Assembly: GCF_008629655.1 (NCBI RefSeq)
Contig: NZ_VWSG01000003.1
Location: 36,273 to 100,272 of the forward strand
Length of the DNA stretch: 64,000 nucleotides
Direction of reading: 5' to 3'
Source of the DNA: Paenimyroides baculatum
GTDB taxonomy: Bacteria; Bacteroidota; Bacteroidia; Flavobacteriales; Flavobacteriaceae
Shown piece by piece: positions 42,180 to 50,967 of this stretch (positions are counted from its first letter, which is position 1; each line of letters starts with the position of its first letter). The notes under the pieces are model-generated. The model worked only from the letters and a program-made list of their open reading frames with translations. It did no database searches and was not told the DNA's origin. The translations under genes and the position numbers were made by a program.

Positions 42180-42830
42180 ATGATTGTATCAAAAATTAAT
42201 GGTAATGAAAAGTCTATAGCTGTAATCTTAGATGATCATAAGATTTTTGGAGATTCCTTTTTAATGACCCTTGATAAGTTAAATCTTTTTAAATCTGTAA
42301 AGGCATTTTACAATGAAAAAGATTTTCTACATTTTGTAAAAGCTAATCAAAACGATCCTCTTTTTTTATTTATCGATTATTATCTTAAAGATCATAATTC
42401 TCTGGAAATTATTAGTACCGTTAAAAAATTAAGTAGGGAAATTAAGATTATAGTTATATCCAGTTTAACGAATCCACAACTTGCAAAAACCATTTTTGAC
42501 TATGAGCCCGATGGTTTTATAAGTAAATCATCACCTGTTGATACCATTGTGGAATGTGTTTACGCAATTAACAACAGAAAAAGTTATATCTGTTCAGAAA
42601 TCAAAAATATAATACGTTCGTTTGAAGAGTCCAAACAGATACCTTTTACAAAAAAAGAACTTTATCTTCTTAACTATTTTGCGCAAGGCCTCTCTATAGA
42701 TCAAACTGCAGACAAGGTTTTTTTAAGCAGACATACCATTATTGCTCACCGTCGAAAAATGATGGAAAAAACCAATACCCGTTCTATATCTGAACTTTTA
42801 GCATATTGCAGACAATTAGACATCATTTAG
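42180..42830 (+). CDS. LuxR-type response regulator
   Basis: 216 aa. Receiver: Asp18/Asp19 (ILDDHKIFGDS), phosphoacceptor Asp66 in LFLFIDYY, Ser94, Lys116 (GFISKSSPVD). C-terminal NarL/FixJ HTH: FTKKELYLLNYFAQGLSIDQTADKVFLSRHTIIAHRRKMMEK. It pairs with the kinase 12 bases downstream, and probably with the broken divergent kinase. Binds DNA when phosphorylated; targets unknown. Confidence 0.9.
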   Translation: MIVSKINGNEKSIAVILDDHKIFGDSFLMTLDKLNLFKSVKAFYNEKDFLHFVKANQNDPLFLFIDYYLKDHNSLEIISTVKKLSREIKIIVISSLTNPQLAKTIFDYEPDGFISKSSPVDTIVECVYAINNRKSYICSEIKNIIRSFEESKQIPFTKKELYLLNYFAQGLSIDQTADKVFLSRHTIIAHRRKMMEKTNTRSISELLAYCRQLDII

Positions 42831-42842
42831 TTTTCAAGTATT

Positions 42843-44732
42843 ATGAGAGCACTATCATTATTTTTCCTATTAAATATTTCCGTATTATCTGCACAAAATA
42901 AAGATTCGGCTCCCAATTCCTACAAGAAAATGCATACAGAATATGTACGGGAGAAAACTCACGATACCGTTTATATGCGTAAGGTTAAGGAATTAAGCAC
43001 AGATATTCTCTTTCAGGGTTTGTATATAAAACCTAATGAGTTGAGAGAATATTTAAAAACTTATGAAAAAATTGCCTTTTCGAACAAAGAATATGAAAAG
43101 TACCGCATTGATTACTACAGAATGTTTTTAAGCAATGCCGCTTTATTTCAAAAAAGAGGCGAAGCCATGTATTTTGCAGAAAAAGTAACAAGGGAATATG
43201 CTTTACAAAACCAACATTCGTTAAGTGAATCAGCACATAAAATCAAAATCTTTGTTACAAGTGCGAATATTGAAAAGGTTATAGAGACATACAACAAAGA
43301 AAAGAAGTTCCTTAAACGTATTCCCTATCTCCTGTCAAAAGACAGTATCAATTCAAATATTGCAATTGATGCTTTTCACATACTCTCACCGGTGAGCGCA
43401 TCATATAATCAGTTGGGTGATTCTAAAAATCTTTCTGAAATATATAATCTTTCTGTAAAAATAATCAATGAACTTAAAAAAAAGAATTTAGACAGTAATG
43501 ATCTATTTTCTATGGATCTTCATTTACTGGAACAGAAGTTTTTTATATCTTTTGTTAACAAAGATTACAAAAGGTGCAGCACCATTCTCAACGAGATTGA
43601 AAAATTAAAAAATAATTACAAAAGCAAAACGGATATCACCTGGCTTGAACATGCGCTTACTGAATGGAAGATAGATTTTTATTTAAAAGCCAATAAAGTT
43701 GACAGTGCGCAATATTACATAAAAAAATATAACGATCTCCCTCAAATTTCTCAAGATATAAAAGAACGCATCTTATCTTATTCCGCCCAAGTAAATTTTA
43801 TTAAAGGGAATTATAAAGAAGCCTATCTGCAACTGCAAAAAGCAAATGTTATTGGCGACAGTATAAAAACAAACCTAACCGGTGAACTTGACGATTTACT
43901 GTATTCTTACACCAAAGCCGAAGATACACAGAATGCTTTAGTACTGGCAGAAAAAACTAAAAGCAATCAAAGACTGTTGTTTATTTGTATTTCTATTGCT
44001 TTTGTTATTGTAATTTTCTCGATAATATGGTTTAGAGTAAGAAGAAACAGAATTATTCAGAATAAAATTGCAAGTTTAAACAATATTGCCAACATTCAAA
44101 TAGCTACTATGGAAGAAATGACTTTTCAGGCAGTAAAACAAGAACAGATTCGTTTGGGCGAAGATCTTCACAATTCAACAGCTTCAAGCCTGTCTGCCAT
44201 AAAATATCAAATCGAATCTCTTTTAATGGAAAATGATTCCATTGACTACAAACCACAGTTAACAACAATATTAAAATATGTTACTGATGTTTACAAACAT
44301 ACACGTAGTAAAAGTCATGAATGGTATTCTTTATCAGAAAACAAGGCCGAAGTTTTATTCTACCAACAAGTTTATACCAATCTTGAAATGTTTTTCCCTT
44401 CTAATCATTACAATAAAAAAGTAGAAATAGATCAAAATGTGTTAGAGGATATAAGTTCCGCTAAGAAAATAGAACTTTTAAAAGTAATACAGGAAGCATT
44501 GTCAAACATTATTAAACATTCAAAAGCACGTACTATTTCACTAATGATTTTTAGAGAGAATGACAACTCATTTGCGTTAATAATCAAAAATGACGGTAAA
44601 TTTAATACGCAAAAAGAAAGTAATGGTTTAGGCATAAAATCTATAATTTCCCGAATATCCACTATGAAAGGAAATGTAAAGATTAATACACAAGATGGTT
44701 TTGAAATTTATATAAATATACCTATCAATTAA
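42843..44732 (+). CDS. TPR-like sensor histidine kinase (HisKA_3)
   Basis: 629 aa. Signal peptide (FFLLNISVLSAQ); periplasmic helical (TPR-like) region to about 375; TM at 378-397 (CISIAFVIVIFSIIWF); coiled coil; HisKA_3 box RLGEDLHNSTASSLSAIKYQIESLL with His443; ATPase with N-box QEALSNIIKHSKA and G2 NGLGIKSIISRIS. The G1 box reads KNDGKFN instead of the usual DxGxG, so ATP binding may be altered. It phosphorylates the response regulator just upstream. Same layout as its broken neighbour, so a duplicated sensor. Confidence 0.88.
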   Translation: MRALSLFFLLNISVLSAQNKDSAPNSYKKMHTEYVREKTHDTVYMRKVKELSTDILFQGLYIKPNELREYLKTYEKIAFSNKEYEKYRIDYYRMFLSNAALFQKRGEAMYFAEKVTREYALQNQHSLSESAHKIKIFVTSANIEKVIETYNKEKKFLKRIPYLLSKDSINSNIAIDAFHILSPVSASYNQLGDSKNLSEIYNLSVKIINELKKKNLDSNDLFSMDLHLLEQKFFISFVNKDYKRCSTILNEIEKLKNNYKSKTDITWLEHALTEWKIDFYLKANKVDSAQYYIKKYNDLPQISQDIKERILSYSAQVNFIKGNYKEAYLQLQKANVIGDSIKTNLTGELDDLLYSYTKAEDTQNALVLAEKTKSNQRLLFICISIAFVIVIFSIIWFRVRRNRIIQNKIASLNNIANIQIATMEEMTFQAVKQEQIRLGEDLHNSTASSLSAIKYQIESLLMENDSIDYKPQLTTILKYVTDVYKHTRSKSHEWYSLSENKAEVLFYQQVYTNLEMFFPSNHYNKKVEIDQNVLEDISSAKKIELLKVIQEALSNIIKHSKARTISLMIFRENDNSFALIIKNDGKFNTQKESNGLGIKSIISRISTMKGNVKINTQDGFEIYINIPIN

Positions 44733-45904: not shown

Positions 45905-46040
45905 AAACAAAAAAACGTCACAACGAGGTAACGCCTGTAAACTTTGAATACTTTTCTGACTTTTATATCTCCATAATAATAAATTCTGATCTATGGTTTG
46001 CCTGATTTGCTTCTTCGAAGCATATTGCTAAATCAGCTGT
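45905..46040 (-). pseudogene. Remnant of an OmpA-family gene 3' end plus its terminator
   Basis: Minus frame at about 45968-46040: TADLAICFEEANQANHRSEF, then IIMEI, then TAA. This matches the end of the OmpA gene at 52413 (SEEAHQANRRSEFIILEM). The DNA similarity continues past the stop into the terminator: AAAAAACGTCACAACGAGGTAACG here against AAAAAGCGCTACCAAATGGTAACG at 52362-52385. Only about 25 codons remain. It abuts the left guide-RNA unit. Confidence 0.7.
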
Positions 46041-46132
46041 TAAAGACAATGAACCACGCGTTGTATATGCAGTTGCATTTAGTGAGTATTGCCAACCAAA
46101 CTCACCCTGCGGGTAAACAATGACTTCTCAAT
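46040..46132 (-). ncRNA. Candidate guide RNA A (scaffold plus guide)
   Basis: On the minus strand, scaffold at 46132-46060: TTGAGAAGTCATTG, hairpin TACCC-GCA-GGGT, GTGAGT paired with ACTCAC over a 12-base loop, hairpin ATGCA-AC-TGCAT, ending ATACAAC. The next 20 bases (46059-46040), GCGTGGTTCATTGTCTTTAA, would be the guide. The stems are conserved with compensating changes in copy B. Lies 274 bases past the Cas12f-like stop, same strand. Confidence 0.6.
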
Positions 46133-46321
46133 TATTTTATTATACATAAATTCCTGATTTATCAACTTAATATTTAGATTGGCCATAACTATAACATAAT
46201 TCAGTTTAACAATTACAACTGCATTTATCAGTACTTCTATAAGTCCTCGGTTATTAATACAAACTACCTACAGATATTTGCTATAAATCTTTTTCTGTTC
46301 AATTTTAAAACTAACTATCGA
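46133..46321. other. AT-rich spacer between the two scaffold units
   Basis: About 190 bases, with no coding frame. It includes the proposed guide B at its right end (46302-46321). Nothing else recognised. Confidence 0.4.
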
Positions 46322-46394
46322 GTTGTATATGCTTTTTGCATTCAGTGAGTGTTAACAATAAACCTCACCCTATGGGTGTACAATCACCCTCAAA
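46302..46394 (-). ncRNA. Candidate guide RNA B (scaffold plus guide)
   Basis: Minus strand scaffold at 46394-46322: TTGAGGGTGATTG, hairpin CACCC-ATA-GGGTG, GTGAG paired with CTCAC, hairpin ATGC-AAAAA-GCAT, ending ATACAAC. The following 20 bases (46321-46302), TCGATAGTTAGTTTTAAAAT, would be the guide. The scaffold begins 11 bases after the Cas12f-like stop codon. The loop and outer stems differ from copy A while the pairing is kept. The guides share no sequence. Confidence 0.65.
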
Positions 46395-46405
46395 ATATTT
46401 TACCA

Positions 46406-47503
46406 TCAGGCAGTAATTAGTTCAATACCTGCTTTATCGGCTTTGTACTTTATCTTTGTTAGCAGTTCATGATAACTCCAGTTACGCAATAAGAATTGTT
46501 CCTCCCTTACGATATCCGAGTTTTCCTGCGCATCTAAAAGCACAAGCGTCGCTGCCTTATTTTCTATGCAAAAATCAATCAGCCTTTTACTGTATTCATG
46601 CAACCGTGTTTTTATATAATTACTTTCAGCATCGCTAAACCTCTCTAGCGCTTTTAACTTTCTATCTCTGCCCTTACCACCTTTGCAATAAGGTACTCCC
46701 GACATGGTTCTGGCACGCGCAGCCTGGATCGCCAGTCTTCTGTGTAAAAATTCTTCCTTGTTGCCGATCTGTAACCTATTCTTACCGATTTTAACAGATA
46801 TTGGATATTCTATCGACAACGAAGCTTCTGCAACGATTTCAGGTTTCAGGCTGTGATCTTCTTTAGGAATTTCAAAAACCGGCAGCCAGAATATTTTTCC
46901 CTTTTCAATTTTAATTTTCGACCTGCAAAGTTTTACTTTCCCAATTATAAGCTGTTCCAATAGTTCGTGTTTTCCGAAAGAACCCCTTCCCAAATAGGTT
47001 TTTAAAGGAATTTTAAATAAGCGGAAACAATACGCTTTTTTCTCTTCATTGTATTGGAACTGCCTAAAACCTTCTGTTCCAAAAGGGAAAGCCATGTTTT
47101 GTTTGAAATTCTGTAATGAGCGGGTACCGTTCAAATAATCCATATAGTTATTTTTAAATGCCCCCATAAGTTCGTAATTAAGATAAGCAAGTATGTTAAC
47201 CGGTATTTCTCCTTTAAAACGATTACTCAACATCCTATAAATACTATTGCTGTACGAACACTGCAAGATACCTTCGGTGTCCTTCTTTTCATCTACCAGT
47301 TTGTATTTTACACCTTCAGACAGATAGAGAAAATCTTTTATCATTATCTGCACATACAAATGACTCACAATAAGGTTTGCTGCACGAAGGCTTCTGTCCT
47401 GCCATCTGTATAGTATTTTCTTTGCTTCTTTTCTTTCCTCAGCCGTTGGCAGATCTACCGTTAACCGAATTTTCCGTACTAGTTTCATTGTTGTCTTTTC
47501 CAT
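46406..47503 (-). CDS. Nuclease-dead Cas12f/TnpB-like RNA-guided protein
   Basis: 365 aa. The N-terminal half resembles TnpB/Cas12f wedge and recognition regions (KIRLTVDLPTAEERKEAKKILYRWQDRSLRAANLIVSHLY). RuvC-I should be near 227-247 (ASLSIEYPISVKIGKNRLQIG): the catalytic Asp is Glu232 or lost. The bridge region KGGKGRDRKLKALERFSDAESNYIKTRLHEYSKRLIDFCIENKAATLVLLDAQ leads to RuvC-II, where the Glu is replaced (VLLDA at 321-325). NWSYHELLTKIKYKADKAGIEL is the TnpB-typical segment, after which the protein stops: no CxxC zinc finger and no RuvC-III Asp. So it likely binds a guide RNA and DNA without cutting. It follows the sigma gene by 11 bases. Confidence 0.78.
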   Translation of the reverse strand: MEKTTMKLVRKIRLTVDLPTAEERKEAKKILYRWQDRSLRAANLIVSHLYVQIMIKDFLYLSEGVKYKLVDEKKDTEGILQCSYSNSIYRMLSNRFKGEIPVNILAYLNYELMGAFKNNYMDYLNGTRSLQNFKQNMAFPFGTEGFRQFQYNEEKKAYCFRLFKIPLKTYLGRGSFGKHELLEQLIIGKVKLCRSKIKIEKGKIFWLPVFEIPKEDHSLKPEIVAEASLSIEYPISVKIGKNRLQIGNKEEFLHRRLAIQAARARTMSGVPYCKGGKGRDRKLKALERFSDAESNYIKTRLHEYSKRLIDFCIENKAATLVLLDAQENSDIVREEQFLLRNWSYHELLTKIKYKADKAGIELITA

Positions 47504-47514
47504 AACAGAAAGTA

Positions 47515-48294
47515 TTATACTGATTGGTTCTGATGTTGATTTGTGAACTTATAGGCGGCTATAAATTCCTCTTGTACCTCTTTCTGGGTAAGGTTGAGTT
47601 CCCGTGCAATTGCTGCAAACGAGCACTTCATTTCGATCCGTAGTTTTAATACCTGAGACTGTCTTTCGCTCATGGTTTGTACCTTATATTCAGATTCAGC
47701 CTTTTCTTTTTTCCTTTCAAGCACAGTACGCCGATCAACGATTTTTTTAATATCTTCTACTGCCCGTTGTACCTCGTTAACGGTTTCCCTAATACCCTTA
47801 CCTGTTACCTGAGCAATTTCTTTGTACCGGAAACCATATTTCAAACAAAGATTGATAAGGTTCCTTCTTTCCGGACGAATCAGCGGTAATACTTTATTTA
47901 ACTGATCGAATAATTCTTGCTGTGAATCCTGATCCTGCAAATTCACAACTGAATCTGCCGGATCATATCCCGCCAGATAGTCCTTATAATTTTCGTACTT
48001 CTCAAACGAACTGACGGTTGTTCTGAAAAATTGGTTCCTTGGTTTGTAATAATGCTCGTAGCAGCTTCTTTTCATCACAAATCTCAGGAAAAACAAAATA
48101 TGCATAGGATCTTCTATCTTTTCACGATAATTCCATAATTTTAAAAAAGTATCCTGTACCAAATTCTCTACAATAAATTCGTCATCAATTATCTTTCTGC
48201 CTAACCAAAAGATCCTTCTGTTGTATTGGGCATGAATTTTTCCTAAAGCAGCGGGATCGCTTTTTTTTAATAATTCAAAATTTTTTTCCAGCAT
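47515..48294 (-). CDS. ECF-like sigma factor with extra C-terminal HTH
   Basis: 259 aa; ordinary ECF sigma factors are near 170-200. Sigma-2: DPAALGKIHAQYNRRIFWLGRKIIDDEFIVENLVQDTFLKLWNYREKI (about 13-60), including the core-binding region. Sigma-4: NKVLPLIRPERRNLINLCLKYGFRYKEIAQVTGKGIRETVNEVQRAVEDIKK (about 133-184), with HTH YKEIAQVTGKGIRETVNEVQ. A basic linker (about 187-203) leads to another HTH (MSERQSQVLKLRIEMKCSFAAIARELNLTQKEVQEEFIAAYKF). No anti-sigma gene beside it. It probably recruits RNA polymerase, and the extra domain may contact the Cas12f-like protein. Confidence 0.85.
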   Translation of the reverse strand: MLEKNFELLKKSDPAALGKIHAQYNRRIFWLGRKIIDDEFIVENLVQDTFLKLWNYREKIEDPMHILFFLRFVMKRSCYEHYYKPRNQFFRTTVSSFEKYENYKDYLAGYDPADSVVNLQDQDSQQELFDQLNKVLPLIRPERRNLINLCLKYGFRYKEIAQVTGKGIRETVNEVQRAVEDIKKIVDRRTVLERKKEKAESEYKVQTMSERQSQVLKLRIEMKCSFAAIARELNLTQKEVQEEFIAAYKFTNQHQNQSV

Positions 48295-48378
48295 AATGGG
48301 GTGATTTTTTAATTATACTCTTTTTTAATCGAATTAGGCTTCAGTCTCTTTCGATTTTCATTCTCCATAATTCGTAAT

Positions 48379-48560
48379 TGATATATTCGGTTTCTCTGTA
48401 CTTTTCATGCCCGAAAAGTACCAAAAGTGCTTTTATTGCGGCGATCTTCTAATCGGTCGAAATTCACTTTTGAAGCTACCAGATCGAAACGTCGCTACGC
48501 TCCCCGATCTGCTTACGCTCCAGGCAGTGTTTCGACGCTCGATTAAAACCTCATACCGCT
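48379..48560. repeat. Dispersed intergenic repeat, copy 1
   Basis: CGGTTTCTCTGTACTTTT, then GGCGATCTTCTAATCGGTCG, AATTCACTTTTGAAGCTACC and a GC-richer hairpin-prone end around GATCGAAACGTCGCTACGCT. Homologous to 49590-49790 and in part to 527-735. Confidence 0.8.
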
Positions 48561-48869
48561 GAGTTTCTAGTCCTTTTTCAATTTCAAATCAAAACCCTAA
48601 TACTGTACAATTCCCGATTTAAAACCGACATTATTTTTTCAGCGAACGTCAAATAAGTGGAAATTTCCGTGAATAGAAATGCTGTTTGAGAACTTGTTCG
48701 AGTTTATTTCTTTTAGGAAATAAGACTTTATTTGACCGTTGAAAAAATAGAGTCTTGATCTTTTGTATCTTTTACATCAAGTTAAAAGTTAAAGAAAACT
48801 GGCAAAGCAGAATTTTCTTTAATCTCTCTTTTTTTTTTTTTCAATTATCAATTGACTATGCACTCTGTC

Positions 48870-48892
48870 ATGCTGCACCTGATGCAGCATCG
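48870..48892. repeat. Short hairpin repeat (ATGCTGCA ... TGCAGCAT), copy 1
   Basis: Stem ATGCTGCA / TGCAGCAT with a 5-base loop CCTGA. A second copy lies at 49223-49245 (loop CTACGA-like). Similar REP-like hairpins are, from memory, frequent in Chryseobacterium-type genomes. Confidence 0.6.
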
Positions 48893-49222
48893 CATCTAGT
48901 TTTCCGCACAGTTTGTAATCTTGAACAGAGTGAAAGATCTCTTTCGATTCTCAATCTCCATTGTTCCTGATTTATACACTTCGGTTTTTCTATTCTTTTG
49001 AAAGATCAAAAGAATCAAAAATCTTTTCTTTTAATCTTGCCCCAGTTCAAAAACAGTTGAACTGTTCCTCGTTCGCTAGATGATCGAATTTCGCTACGCT
49101 CCGATCATCTTACGCTCTCATCGTCGGCTCAACTATCGTTTTATGAACTAATGGCGCTTTAATCCTCCTAATTATACTATTCAATTTTCAATCAAAAATA
49201 AGATAGTACTATTTCACTTAAT

Positions 49223-49245
49223 CATGCTGCACTACGATGCAGCAT
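49223..49245. repeat. Short hairpin repeat, copy 2
   Basis: Same stem ATGCTGCA / TGCAGCAT as at 48870, in the same orientation and similar T-rich context. Confidence 0.55.
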
Positions 49246-49589
49246 CTAATTCAGTTTTTCAGTTTCAGAATTTCTATTGTTCATTTGCCTTGATGCAAAA
49301 CGAACCAAAAAATCAAGACTTTACCTTTTCAACGGTCAAAAAGTATTTTTACCGTTTGTTTTTAATTTGTTATCTTTAACTGTTTTTTCTTCTTAAAAAC
49401 AGCGATTTTTCCTTTTTTGAATTTTCCGTATTTTCTGACTAAATTGAAATATTTAGAATAATTTACTGTTTTTTATTGTTTATACCGAAAATCTAGTTCA
49501 TGCTCTATCTATGCTTTATCCATACAGTATCTACTTAGTATCCCCGCTGTTGAGATTTAGAATATTTTTCGGTTTGGCATTTTGTCAAA

Positions 49590-49790
49590 ATGCTTCAAAA
49601 TCATCTCTTTTTCTGTACTTTTTACAGACAAAAAGTACCAAAAGTCTTTTTTTGCGGCGATTTTTTAATCGGTCGAAATTCACTTTTGAAGCTACCAGAT
49701 CGAAACGGTGCTTTACACCCCGATCTGATTACGCTTCATGCAGCGGTTCGACGCTCGATCAAAACATCATACCGCTGGTTTACAGTCAAT
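49590..49790. repeat. Dispersed intergenic repeat, copy 2
   Basis: Same order of blocks as copy 1: CTGTACTTTT, GGCGATTTTTTAATCGGTCG, AAATTCACTTTTGAAGC, then CGAAACGG and a CGCTTCATGCAGCGG hairpin-prone end. Differences from copy 1 are mostly substitutions and short indels. Confidence 0.8.
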
Positions 49791-50058
49791 CCTTGTTTTC
49801 ATTTAAATTCTTCAGCTTGTTACTATTCTATTGTCAGAGCCTGTTTTAACTTAATAGCGCTTCATTTCCTACTTAGACTATTTTGTTTTCAATCAAGAAC
49901 TCTGCACTATAATAAGTATTACTGTATTGTAACGCTGATAATATTATTCATAATAATCTTTTTGAAGCTCCTGCGTTACGACCTTATTAATTAAACATTT
50001 GATTTGGAAAATAGAAATAAAGGCAATACTTTTAAAGTGCGAGTTTATAAGTTAAAAT

Positions 50059-50514
50059 GTCCTATCTCTATGGTGCCAAAGCAATAAGGTACACTATATA
50101 CGGCGTTGGCTTTTGTGTATGACGAACTATTGCAGTTCTACCACACGGTAAGCCTGTTGCTGTTATATAACTTTTGGTGCAGGAGCAACAAAAAGGAAAA
50201 GTTCAGTACCGCATTAAGGCGGACGGGTTATGGCTGTATGTACAAATTTCGTTCTCATAAATTAAGATTTTATGTGGTTATGGAACGATGTTTACGGAGT
50301 ATGAATAATTCTTTGCAGAAAAAAGCAAGGAACGGTTTCACACTTTAGTACCGAGGGCGACCAAACCCAGCTTTAAAACCTAAAGGTTAAAAAGTTACTA
50401 CCTAAAGCATATGTGAAAACCGCCCATGCCGTATACGAAAGTACAAAAACTTTTAAGACATGGAGCGATTTCACGATACTCTCGATAGTAAAATTGGTCG
50501 TTTCGATTCGAGAT
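50059..50514 (+). pseudogene. Possible decayed coding region
   Basis: One frame, starting MSYLYGAKAIRYTIYGVGF, keeps protein-like runs (VLPHGKPVAVI, LLVQEQQKGKVQYRIKADGL, FFAEKSKERFHTLVPRATK) interrupted by about seven in-frame stops. No family recognised. It could be a dead gene or chance. Confidence 0.3.
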
Positions 50515-50585
50515 AACATCGTTTTAATTTGTCTTTGCAGACTCATTATCAATTCGCTAACACAAATATAACAATATTTTTTAAA

Positions 50586-50619: not shown

Positions 50620-50967
50620 ATGATAAAAGAAATTATTTTTGAAACTTCGCAATTTGATTTTGACTTAATTAATCATATTAAGCACTTACGTAAAAGCAAA
50701 GGTTATACACAGGATGAATTGAGTCTAAAAATGGGTGTTGCTAAAAGTTTTGTAAGTAATGTAGAGTCATATACACAACGCCACAAATACGCTACCCGTC
50801 ACCTGACCCTTTTAGCTAAAGCCTTTGGTTTTAATAATATTTCAGATTTATTGAAGTTTCCTACTCCGGGATACGATAAAATAAAAGTAACGGTACAGCA
50901 AACTTATAATGAAACAGGAACTAAAGTAATCAAGAGCGAAGTAATGAAAATTGAACCTATTAATTAA
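50620..50967 (+). CDS. XRE-family HTH regulator
   Basis: 115 aa. HTH core: INHIKHLRKSKGYTQDELSLKMGVAKSFVSNVESYTQRHKYATRHLTLLAKAFGFNNISDLL, a Cro/C1-type helix-turn-helix with the usual Gln and Ser. The C-terminal VTVQQTYNETGTKVIKSEVMKIEP is a short beta segment. Cytoplasmic, DNA-binding; a palindrome just upstream is a likely operator. It lies next to the 2.3-kb repeat region and could belong to a lost mobile or toxin module; no partner seen. Confidence 0.85.
   Translation: MIKEIIFETSQFDFDLINHIKHLRKSKGYTQDELSLKMGVAKSFVSNVESYTQRHKYATRHLTLLAKAFGFNNISDLLKFPTPGYDKIKVTVQQTYNETGTKVIKSEVMKIEPIN

What the first reader, a model, noticed from the sequence alone, without database searches (positions are those of the whole stretch)
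46040..48294. Sigma factor plus nuclease-dead Cas12f/TnpB-like protein: RNA-guided transcription locus
Seen: an operon of an unusual ECF sigma factor, then a TnpB/Cas12f-like protein with altered RuvC-I (Glu for Asp) and RuvC-II (no Glu) and lacking the zinc finger and RuvC-III, then two structured repeat units with different trailing sequences. Known: TnpB and Cas12f use guide RNAs; dead relatives can act as regulators. From memory, recent work on Bacteroidota paired dead Cas12f with sigma-E factors to start transcription at guide-defined sites; I could not check this here. Inference: the guide RNA steers the sigma factor and RNA polymerase to a target, independent of promoter sequence. No cutting, no CRISPR adaptation genes, no transposase beside it.
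Basis: partly seen in the sequence, partly recalled or inferred. Interest (0 to 1): 0.97.

Follow-up and report, generated by a model that had tools for sequence, protein, structure and literature searches.

The report
RNA-guided sigma factor for nutrient-uptake genes
This bacterial gene pair, a sigma factor beside a truncated relative of the CRISPR protein Cas12f that lacks the cutting residues, closely matches a complex whose structure is already solved; two predicted guide RNAs follow it and would likely lead RNA polymerase to the front of a SusC/SusD nutrient-uptake operon, so the system is of a known kind, but its likely natural targets are mapped here.

Summary
The 365-aa protein matches PDB 9n9c 'Nuclease-deactivated Cas12f' (E 8e-150); the sigma factor matches RpoE of companion entry 9n9q.

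The RuvC-I Asp aligns with Ser228, not Glu.

- The genome has four such loci.
- Scaffold units stand directly downstream of dCas12f in 84 of 84 loci examined.
- The commonest guide family, (G)GCGTGGGCT, matches one arm of a covarying structured element ('LE') with no Rfam match. In six genomes, 13 of 14 non-self matches to its core are LE sites.
- LE precedes sigma-dCas12f and susC/susD operons. It is in 13 of 13 dCas12f genomes and 42 of 286 others.
- For the window's distal guide, pooled with a paralogue's, the only two exact sites in 3.34 Mb lie upstream of one susC-susD-peptidase operon.

The adjacent guide has no convincing target. Nothing was tested by experiment.

The parts
47515..48294 (-). 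ECF-type sigma factor (sigma-E/RpoE partner of dCas12f), 259 aa; first gene of the operon
   Evidence: ORF; PDB 9n9q_C RpoE E 3.6e-80, profile of four paralogues E 1.6e-99; Pfam sigma-70 regions 2 and 4
46406..47503 (-). dCas12f, 365 aa, RuvC residues lost and C-terminus truncated
   Evidence: PDB 9n9c E 7.9e-150; PADLOC Cas12f E 1.6e-50; Ser228 and Leu323 at the RuvC-I and RuvC-II positions
46322..46391 (-). guide-RNA scaffold of unit 2 (adjacent to dCas12f), ends GCATATACAAC; 5' limit approximate
   Evidence: profile E 8.7e-20; covarying helices; strand
46302..46321 (-). guide of unit 2, TCGATAGTTAGTTTTAAAAT (20 nt assumed); no convincing target found
46060..46129 (-). guide-RNA scaffold of unit 1 (distal); 5' limit approximate
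   Evidence: profile E 3.5e-14
46040..46059 (-). guide of unit 1, GCGTGGTTCATTGTCTTTAA (20 nt assumed); GCGTG family; candidate sites on contig C12 upstream of susCD
50620..50967 (+). divergent HTH_3 (Cro/C1-type) gene upstream of the operon; a homologous gene stands in the same place at the C30 locus
   Evidence: Pfam HTH_3 E 8.8e-7; L017 13904-14260
49985..50565 (-). conserved, structured noncoding region beside the HTH gene; shared with the C30 and C1 loci; role unknown, link to the system not shown
   Evidence: about 86% identity over about 600 nt; fold z-score -5.37

Best explanation
The locus encodes a sigma factor and a Cas12f relative without its catalytic residues that are predicted to act together as an RNA-guided transcription activator, with guide RNAs likely made from the operon's own 3' end. 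Shown by sequence: both proteins are close relatives of the partners in one solved complex; scaffold units lie on the operon strand directly downstream of dCas12f; in relatives the commonest guide family, (G)GCGTGGGCT, has sites preceded by G that, in the six genomes searched, recur almost only in the LE element, upstream of the sigma-dCas12f operon itself and of susC/susD genes. Inferred: dCas12f binds the guide RNA, opens the matching DNA beside a 5'-G, and presents the sigma factor so that RNA polymerase starts a short distance downstream. In the window's genome the distal guide would then activate a susC-susD-S9 peptidase operon on contig C12; in relatives the same kind of guide would also switch on its own operon (positive feedback). 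The adjacent guide's target is unknown.
For: Protein identity. Four loci in one genome, no internal stops. Scaffold next to dCas12f in 84 of 84 loci; 131 units, 131 on the operon strand when read as guide RNA. Guide matches of at least 12 of 14 within 600 nt upstream of sigma: 16 of 111 guide-locus pairs in sense, 2 of 111 in antisense. LE site 164-243 nt upstream of sigma in 39 of 76 loci with an assigned start. GCGTGGGCTCTCTTAT at 2 mismatches or fewer in 6 genomes chosen because their guides carry or nearly carry it: 21 matches = 7 guides, 13 LE sites, 1 other; reversed control 4. G before the site in 44 of 44 aligned LE copies. Genes after LE are sigma-dCas12f or SusC/SusD in most copies read. 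LE in 13 of 13 dCas12f genomes against 42 of 286 without (Fisher p 7.7e-11). Own genome: the only two exact matches of G plus the pooled first 12 nt of the two GCGTG guides lie 1.3 kb apart on one strand upstream of the C12 susCD operon.
Against: No transcript, binding or activation data. LE also occurs without dCas12f (42 of 286 genomes) and at loci whose local guides are not of the GCGTG family (L064, L084), so LE is not explained by guide targeting alone. 50 of 122 guides read are not of the GCGTG family, and no convincing site was found for those looked at; five of 20 genomes (G000, G021, G100, G304, G305, G307 in part) have LE but no guide that matches it well. The two C12 sites are not inside the C12 LE, lie 998 and 2284 nt from the susC start, and each differs from each single guide at one or two of 12 positions, mostly as U-G wobbles; an 18-nt search with 3 mismatches gave no excess over control (154 against 146). 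The pattern comes from the two guides, but was run after local hits had been seen, and its total with one mismatch allowed (10) is below its control (18). The window's own sigma gene has no LE upstream.
Confidence: 0.88

Rival explanations
1. dCas12f acts as an RNA-guided repressor or roadblock, as TldR proteins do, and the neighbouring sigma factor works on its own at ordinary promoters.
For: A dead nuclease suffices for blocking; TldR is a dead TnpB that represses a target (PMC13418256, abstract and passages seen).
Against: The sigma gene accompanies dCas12f at all four loci of this genome; the best solved relatives of both share PDB entry 9n9q; guide sites lie upstream of operons in sense.
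Confidence: 0.06
2. The GCGTGGGCTC tail of the guide RNA acts on the LE transcript, not on DNA: it pairs with the tail GAGTTCCACGCC and prevents the terminator, an antitermination switch in trans.
For: The guide has the same sequence as the LE arm that pairs with that tail; the arm-tail pairing is kept in 99.1% of cells with 8 double-change cells against 1.0 in shuffles.
Against: It leaves the Cas12f scaffold and the sigma partner unexplained; the candidate sites in the window's genome lie outside LE.
Confidence: 0.05
3. The guide-like match to LE is only a leftover: LE and the scaffold are ends of a mobile unit that carries sigma-dCas12f, and the shared GCGTGGGCTC is a terminal repeat.
For: Several paralogues per genome; LE and scaffold flank the pair in 39 of 76 loci.
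Against: LE stands without dCas12f in front of susC in many genomes; guide and site keep the same orientation and G beside the site; other guide families exist.
Confidence: 0.04

Closest known systems
dCas12f-sigmaE RNA-guided transcription complex (PDB 9n9c, 9n9m, 9n9o, 9n9q); its source Flagellimonas taeanensis and the 2025 preprints on it are recalled, not read
   Same: Both proteins match over nearly their full length, with the same truncated dCas12f (365 aa) and the same gene pair; G beside the site, as I recall for that system.
   Different: Four loci in one genome with diverged guides; adjacent guide without a known target. Whether the preprints describe the LE element or susCD targets could not be checked.
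TldR (nuclease-dead TnpB repressors; PMC13418256, passages seen)
   Same: Nuclease-dead TnpB/Cas12-type protein with a guide RNA that regulates a host gene.
   Different: TldR represses (flagellin) and, as recalled, has no sigma partner; here the inferred effect is activation.
Type V-F CRISPR Cas12f (for example PDB 9nzo, 9nzr, 8hr5, 7wju)
   Same: Same protein fold family by sequence.
   Different: No RuvC triad and no C-terminus; units about 260 nt apart rather than a repeat-spacer array.

Membership tests
dCas12f-sigmaE RNA-guided transcription | dCas12f homologous over full length to the solved protein | tested here: met
   residues 1-363 of 365, 502 bits, E 7.9e-150
dCas12f-sigmaE RNA-guided transcription | RuvC nuclease inactivated | tested here: met
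   Ser228 at RuvC-I, Leu323 at RuvC-II, C-terminus missing
dCas12f-sigmaE RNA-guided transcription | adjacent gene for the cognate sigma factor | tested here: met
   9n9q_C RpoE E 3.6e-80; only PDB match of the four-paralogue profile at E 0.001 or below
dCas12f-sigmaE RNA-guided transcription | guide RNA scaffold beside the genes | tested here: met
   by sequence conservation only: 84 of 84 loci; RNA not observed
dCas12f-sigmaE RNA-guided transcription | guide matches a genomic site beside a 5'-G | tested here: inconclusive
   clear in relatives (G in 44 of 44 LE); in the window's genome candidate sites for guide 1, none convincing for guide 2
dCas12f-sigmaE RNA-guided transcription | guide-dependent recruitment of sigma and RNA polymerase, start site set by distance | not testable with these tools
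   needs ChIP-seq and start-site mapping
Type V-F CRISPR-Cas12f | active RuvC nuclease | tested here: not met
Type V-F CRISPR-Cas12f | CRISPR array | tested here: not met
   two scaffold units 262 nt apart, no short-period repeat-spacer array at 46040-46400
Type V-F CRISPR-Cas12f | adaptation genes cas1/cas2 | not tested
   the window was not scanned for them
IS200/IS605 TnpB element | intact TnpB RuvC triad and zinc ribbon | tested here: not met
   TnpA not searched for
TldR | nuclease-dead TnpB without a sigma partner, repressing its target | tested here: not met
   sigma partner at all four loci of this genome; repression itself not testable

The most novel reading that the evidence does not exclude
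dCas12f-sigma complexes across Flavobacteriia aim at one pre-existing, conserved switch RNA (LE) that faces a Cro/C1-type regulator and precedes susC/susD nutrient-uptake operons and the system's own operon. The guide site is the LE arm that can either close the LE stem or form a terminator with the tail; RNA-guided initiation would begin inside LE, downstream of that arm, so the transcript cannot form the terminator and reads through. A single guide thereby overrides attenuation at every LE-led operon and sustains its own synthesis, while extra paralogues (four in this genome) carry diverged guides that rewire the regulon.
Probability: 0.35. Interest if true: 0.85.

Novelty: new member of a known kind. 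Interest (0 to 1): 0.6.

Why it matters
The machine itself is known from solved structures, but what such systems control in nature is the open part, as far as the papers held here tell. The guide-to-LE matches give concrete, testable natural targets: the system's own operon and outer-membrane nutrient importers (SusC/SusD). A genome with four paralogues and diverged guides is a natural case of an RNA-guided regulon being rewired. If the terminator-bypass reading holds, it would join RNA-guided initiation to classical attenuation.

Tried and rejected
Rejected: guides on the + strand (CACCCTC...). I first took them as guides; the tail is near-invariant, CACCCTCGTARCC gave 18 matches against 19 control in 7 genomes, and CACCCTCAANATNTTNTANT in the own genome gave 76 places against 61 control, several of them the units themselves. 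Candidates (regions fetched, viewed) led nowhere.

Weak leads not adopted: a C27 guide against G|AAAATCGAAAGAG 64 nt upstream of the window's sigma gene and 94 nt upstream of the C1 sigma gene, 11 of 12 positions, but similar intergenic sequence recurs nearby, so repeat origin or chance is not excluded. Guide 2: four sites at 3 mismatches or fewer beside itself against one in the control; the one preceded by G mismatches at its first bases. Rfam for LE: no match at the cut-offs in six loci and nothing credible at E 10; BTnc060 at 50445-50577 has E 0.88, 25.9 bits against a cut-off of 228.9. LE scan of the window: none (best 9.4 bits). Papers: nine of ten searches used; in the listings seen none was about dCas12f with a sigma factor or about LE; only PMC13418256 was opened, by passages. 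Preprint servers are not held, so no claim is made that LE or susCD targets are absent from print. Not run: structure prediction and fold search (a close solved relative exists), the large protein search, viral contigs.
Full report
What is there. The operon on the minus strand holds a 259-aa ECF-type sigma gene (47515-48294) and a 365-aa Cas12f-like gene (46406-47503). Pfam has no family for the latter at E 1, but PADLOC Cas12f models match (E 1.6e-50) and the best solved relative is PDB 9n9c, named 'Nuclease-deactivated Cas12f' (E 7.9e-150, residues 1-363). The sigma protein matches 9n9q_C 'RpoE' (E 3.6e-80); with a profile of four paralogues that chain is the only PDB match at E 0.001 or below (1.6e-99). 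Entry 9n9q is also one of the entries of the dCas12f sequence. So the pair belongs to a system with a solved structure; that these entries come from Flagellimonas taeanensis and from 2025 preprints on RNA-guided transcription is recalled. The searches of the held library did not list those papers.

The nuclease is dead. In alignments to other Cas12f chains the RuvC-I Asp falls on Ser228, invariant in the four paralogues; the RuvC-II Glu falls on Leu323; residue 362 of 365 aligns with residue 414 of 506 in 9nzo.

Four loci. The window is G000:C23:36273-100272. The same genome has three more sigma-dCas12f pairs, on C1, C27 and C30 (dCas12f 71, 68 and 60% identical to the window's). The '1 TAG' reported for the C1 sigma match is its normal stop. 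In the family dCas12f is rare: 13 of 299 genomes, some of them with remnants only.

The guide RNA and its strand. A profile made from 69 seed units finds 131 units in 84 of 84 loci (4 own, 80 of 101 relatives), in each of the 84 with a unit within 150 nt of the dCas12f match end. As first drawn they run against dCas12f. Read that way, the tail CACCCTC is almost invariant and CACCCTCGTARCC has no targets above control. Read on the operon strand (131 of 131) the units end ...GCATATACAAC, followed by sequences that differ. Helix cells that are not Watson-Crick fit G-U on the operon strand 59 times and on the other strand 16 times. I therefore place the guides of the window at 46321-46302 (TCGATAGTTAGTTTTAAAAT, adjacent to dCas12f) and 46059-46040 (GCGTGGTTCATTGTCTTTAA, distal). 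The guide length of 20 is assumed.

Targets in relatives. Of 122 guides read, 72 start with the wider GCG[TC]G family, up to two G's before it, 40 with (G)GCGTGGGCT and 12 with the exact core GCGTGGGCTCTCTTAT. In the 600 nt upstream of sigma, matches of at least 12 of 14 occur in 16 of 111 guide-locus pairs in sense and in 2 of 111 in antisense. The site sits 164-243 nt upstream of sigma in 39 of 76 loci with an assigned start, inside a conserved element here called LE. Forty-four LE copies give 32 consensus pairs, 16 with changes on both sides; 159 double-change cells against 43 in shuffles, 99.1% of cells paired against 87.8%. The arm that carries the site can also pair with a downstream tail, GAGTTCCACGCC followed by T's: 99.1% of cells against 97.5% in shuffles, 8 double-change cells against 1.0, an attenuator-like choice. 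No Rfam family reached its cut-off in the loci scanned. The base before the site is G in 44 of 44.

LE is wider than dCas12f. It is in 20 of 20 dCas12f-bearing genomes chosen, and in the 299-genome survey in 55, among them 13 of 13 with dCas12f and 42 of 286 without (taken to be the same draw because handles and numbers agree; Fisher p 7.7e-11; relatedness not corrected). Outside dCas12f loci LE mostly lies between a divergent small HTH gene (Pfam HTH_3 or HTH_26 in 7 of 9 such proteins scanned) and a SusC-like receptor, followed by SusD where enough DNA was read (4 SusC-like and 2 SusD-like proteins confirmed by Pfam). The receptor starts about 320-850 nt from the LE start in most copies measured, 1035-4036 nt in L244, L251 and L252. 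In dCas12f-less genomes the site with its G was read in 16 of 18 LE loci; in the other two the script did not place it. A search of six whole genomes with GCGTGGGCTCTCTTAT at 2 mismatches or fewer returns 21 places: 7 guides, 13 LE sites and 1 other, control 4 (compared with the places). The LE sites lead operons of sigma-dCas12f and of susC, in G094 also an ECF sigma-FecR-receptor set and a HEPN-domain gene. Against this, genomes whose guides belong to other families (G100, G304, G305, G307) have LE without a matching guide.

Targets in the window's genome. LE copies lie on C27 (site G|GCGTGAGCTCACTTATC, about 3.5 kb upstream of the C27 sigma gene) and on C12 (G|TCGTGGGCTCACTTATC); a divergent one lies on C30 (34.5 bits). 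None is in the window. The first 12 nt of the window's distal guide and of the C30 guide pool to GCGTGGYTYAYT. G plus this pattern has two exact places in 3.34 Mb, C12:364444 and C12:365730, both minus, 998 and 2284 nt upstream of a susC start, in the stretch between the C12 LE and a susC-susD-S9 peptidase operon. Against the window's guide the C12:365730 site differs once in the first 12 nt (a U-G pair), the C12:364444 site twice (both U-G). Eight further places have one mismatch, two of them the guides themselves; the reversed control has 18 in all, so the seed count alone is not raised and the argument rests on where the two exact places lie. I had seen these two places in a local scan before running the genome-wide pattern. 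An 18-nt pattern gave no excess. I rate this target likely, not certain. The adjacent guide has no convincing site.

How it most likely works. Shown: the parts, their strand, conservation and matches. Inferred: complex formation, R-loop at the site, recruitment of polymerase, activation. In relatives the same guide reaches its own operon, which would give positive feedback, and susCD operons. In L051 the T-run after the tail lies about 66 nt past the first base of the site, so initiation a few tens of nt downstream would give transcripts without the arm and hence without the terminator; the spacing of initiation is recalled, not measured here.

Limits. No expression data; relatedness is not corrected in counts; the genus survey did not complete; guide families other than GCGTG were not traced.

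Noticed in passing
window 49985-50565 (minus); L017 13220-13880 and L019 7220-7880: A structured noncoding region of about 600 nt beside the HTH gene is about 86% identical at three of the four sigma-dCas12f loci of this genome; fold z-score -5.37; role unknown.
   Followed up: partly
window 48300-49900: The stretch upstream of sigma has no convincing genes and shares diverged pieces in shuffled order with the other three loci.
   Followed up: partly
L244 12653-14732 (own genome, contig C12): Beside the small gene that faces LE stands a type I restriction-modification gene (HsdM by Pfam); restriction- or NTPase-like genes seem to stand beyond the HTH gene at several LE loci, so LE may border variable defence cargo.
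   Followed up: no
L018 13573-14550: An ORF that looks like an IS110-type transposase (recalled resemblance, not tested) lies between LE and the sigma gene at the C27 locus.
   Followed up: no
L198 1853-2881 (genome G094): One LE with an exact guide site precedes a HEPN-domain gene instead of susC.
   Followed up: no
window 47515-48294: The sigma protein has two stretches matching Sigma70_r4_2, suggesting a second sigma4-like domain.
   Followed up: no
L018 9653-10462: At the C27 locus four guide units stand in tandem with a 249-250 nt period and their guides have drifted, as if such arrays grow by tandem duplication.
   Followed up: partly
L017 18806-18954 (minus): A divergent LE-like element (34.5 bits) with the site G|GCGTGGCTATG, whose first 8 nt equal the C30 guide's.
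   Followed up: partly
window 42180-44732: A LuxR-type response regulator and a protein with a weak histidine-kinase ATPase match lie beyond the guide units; no link tested.
   Followed up: no
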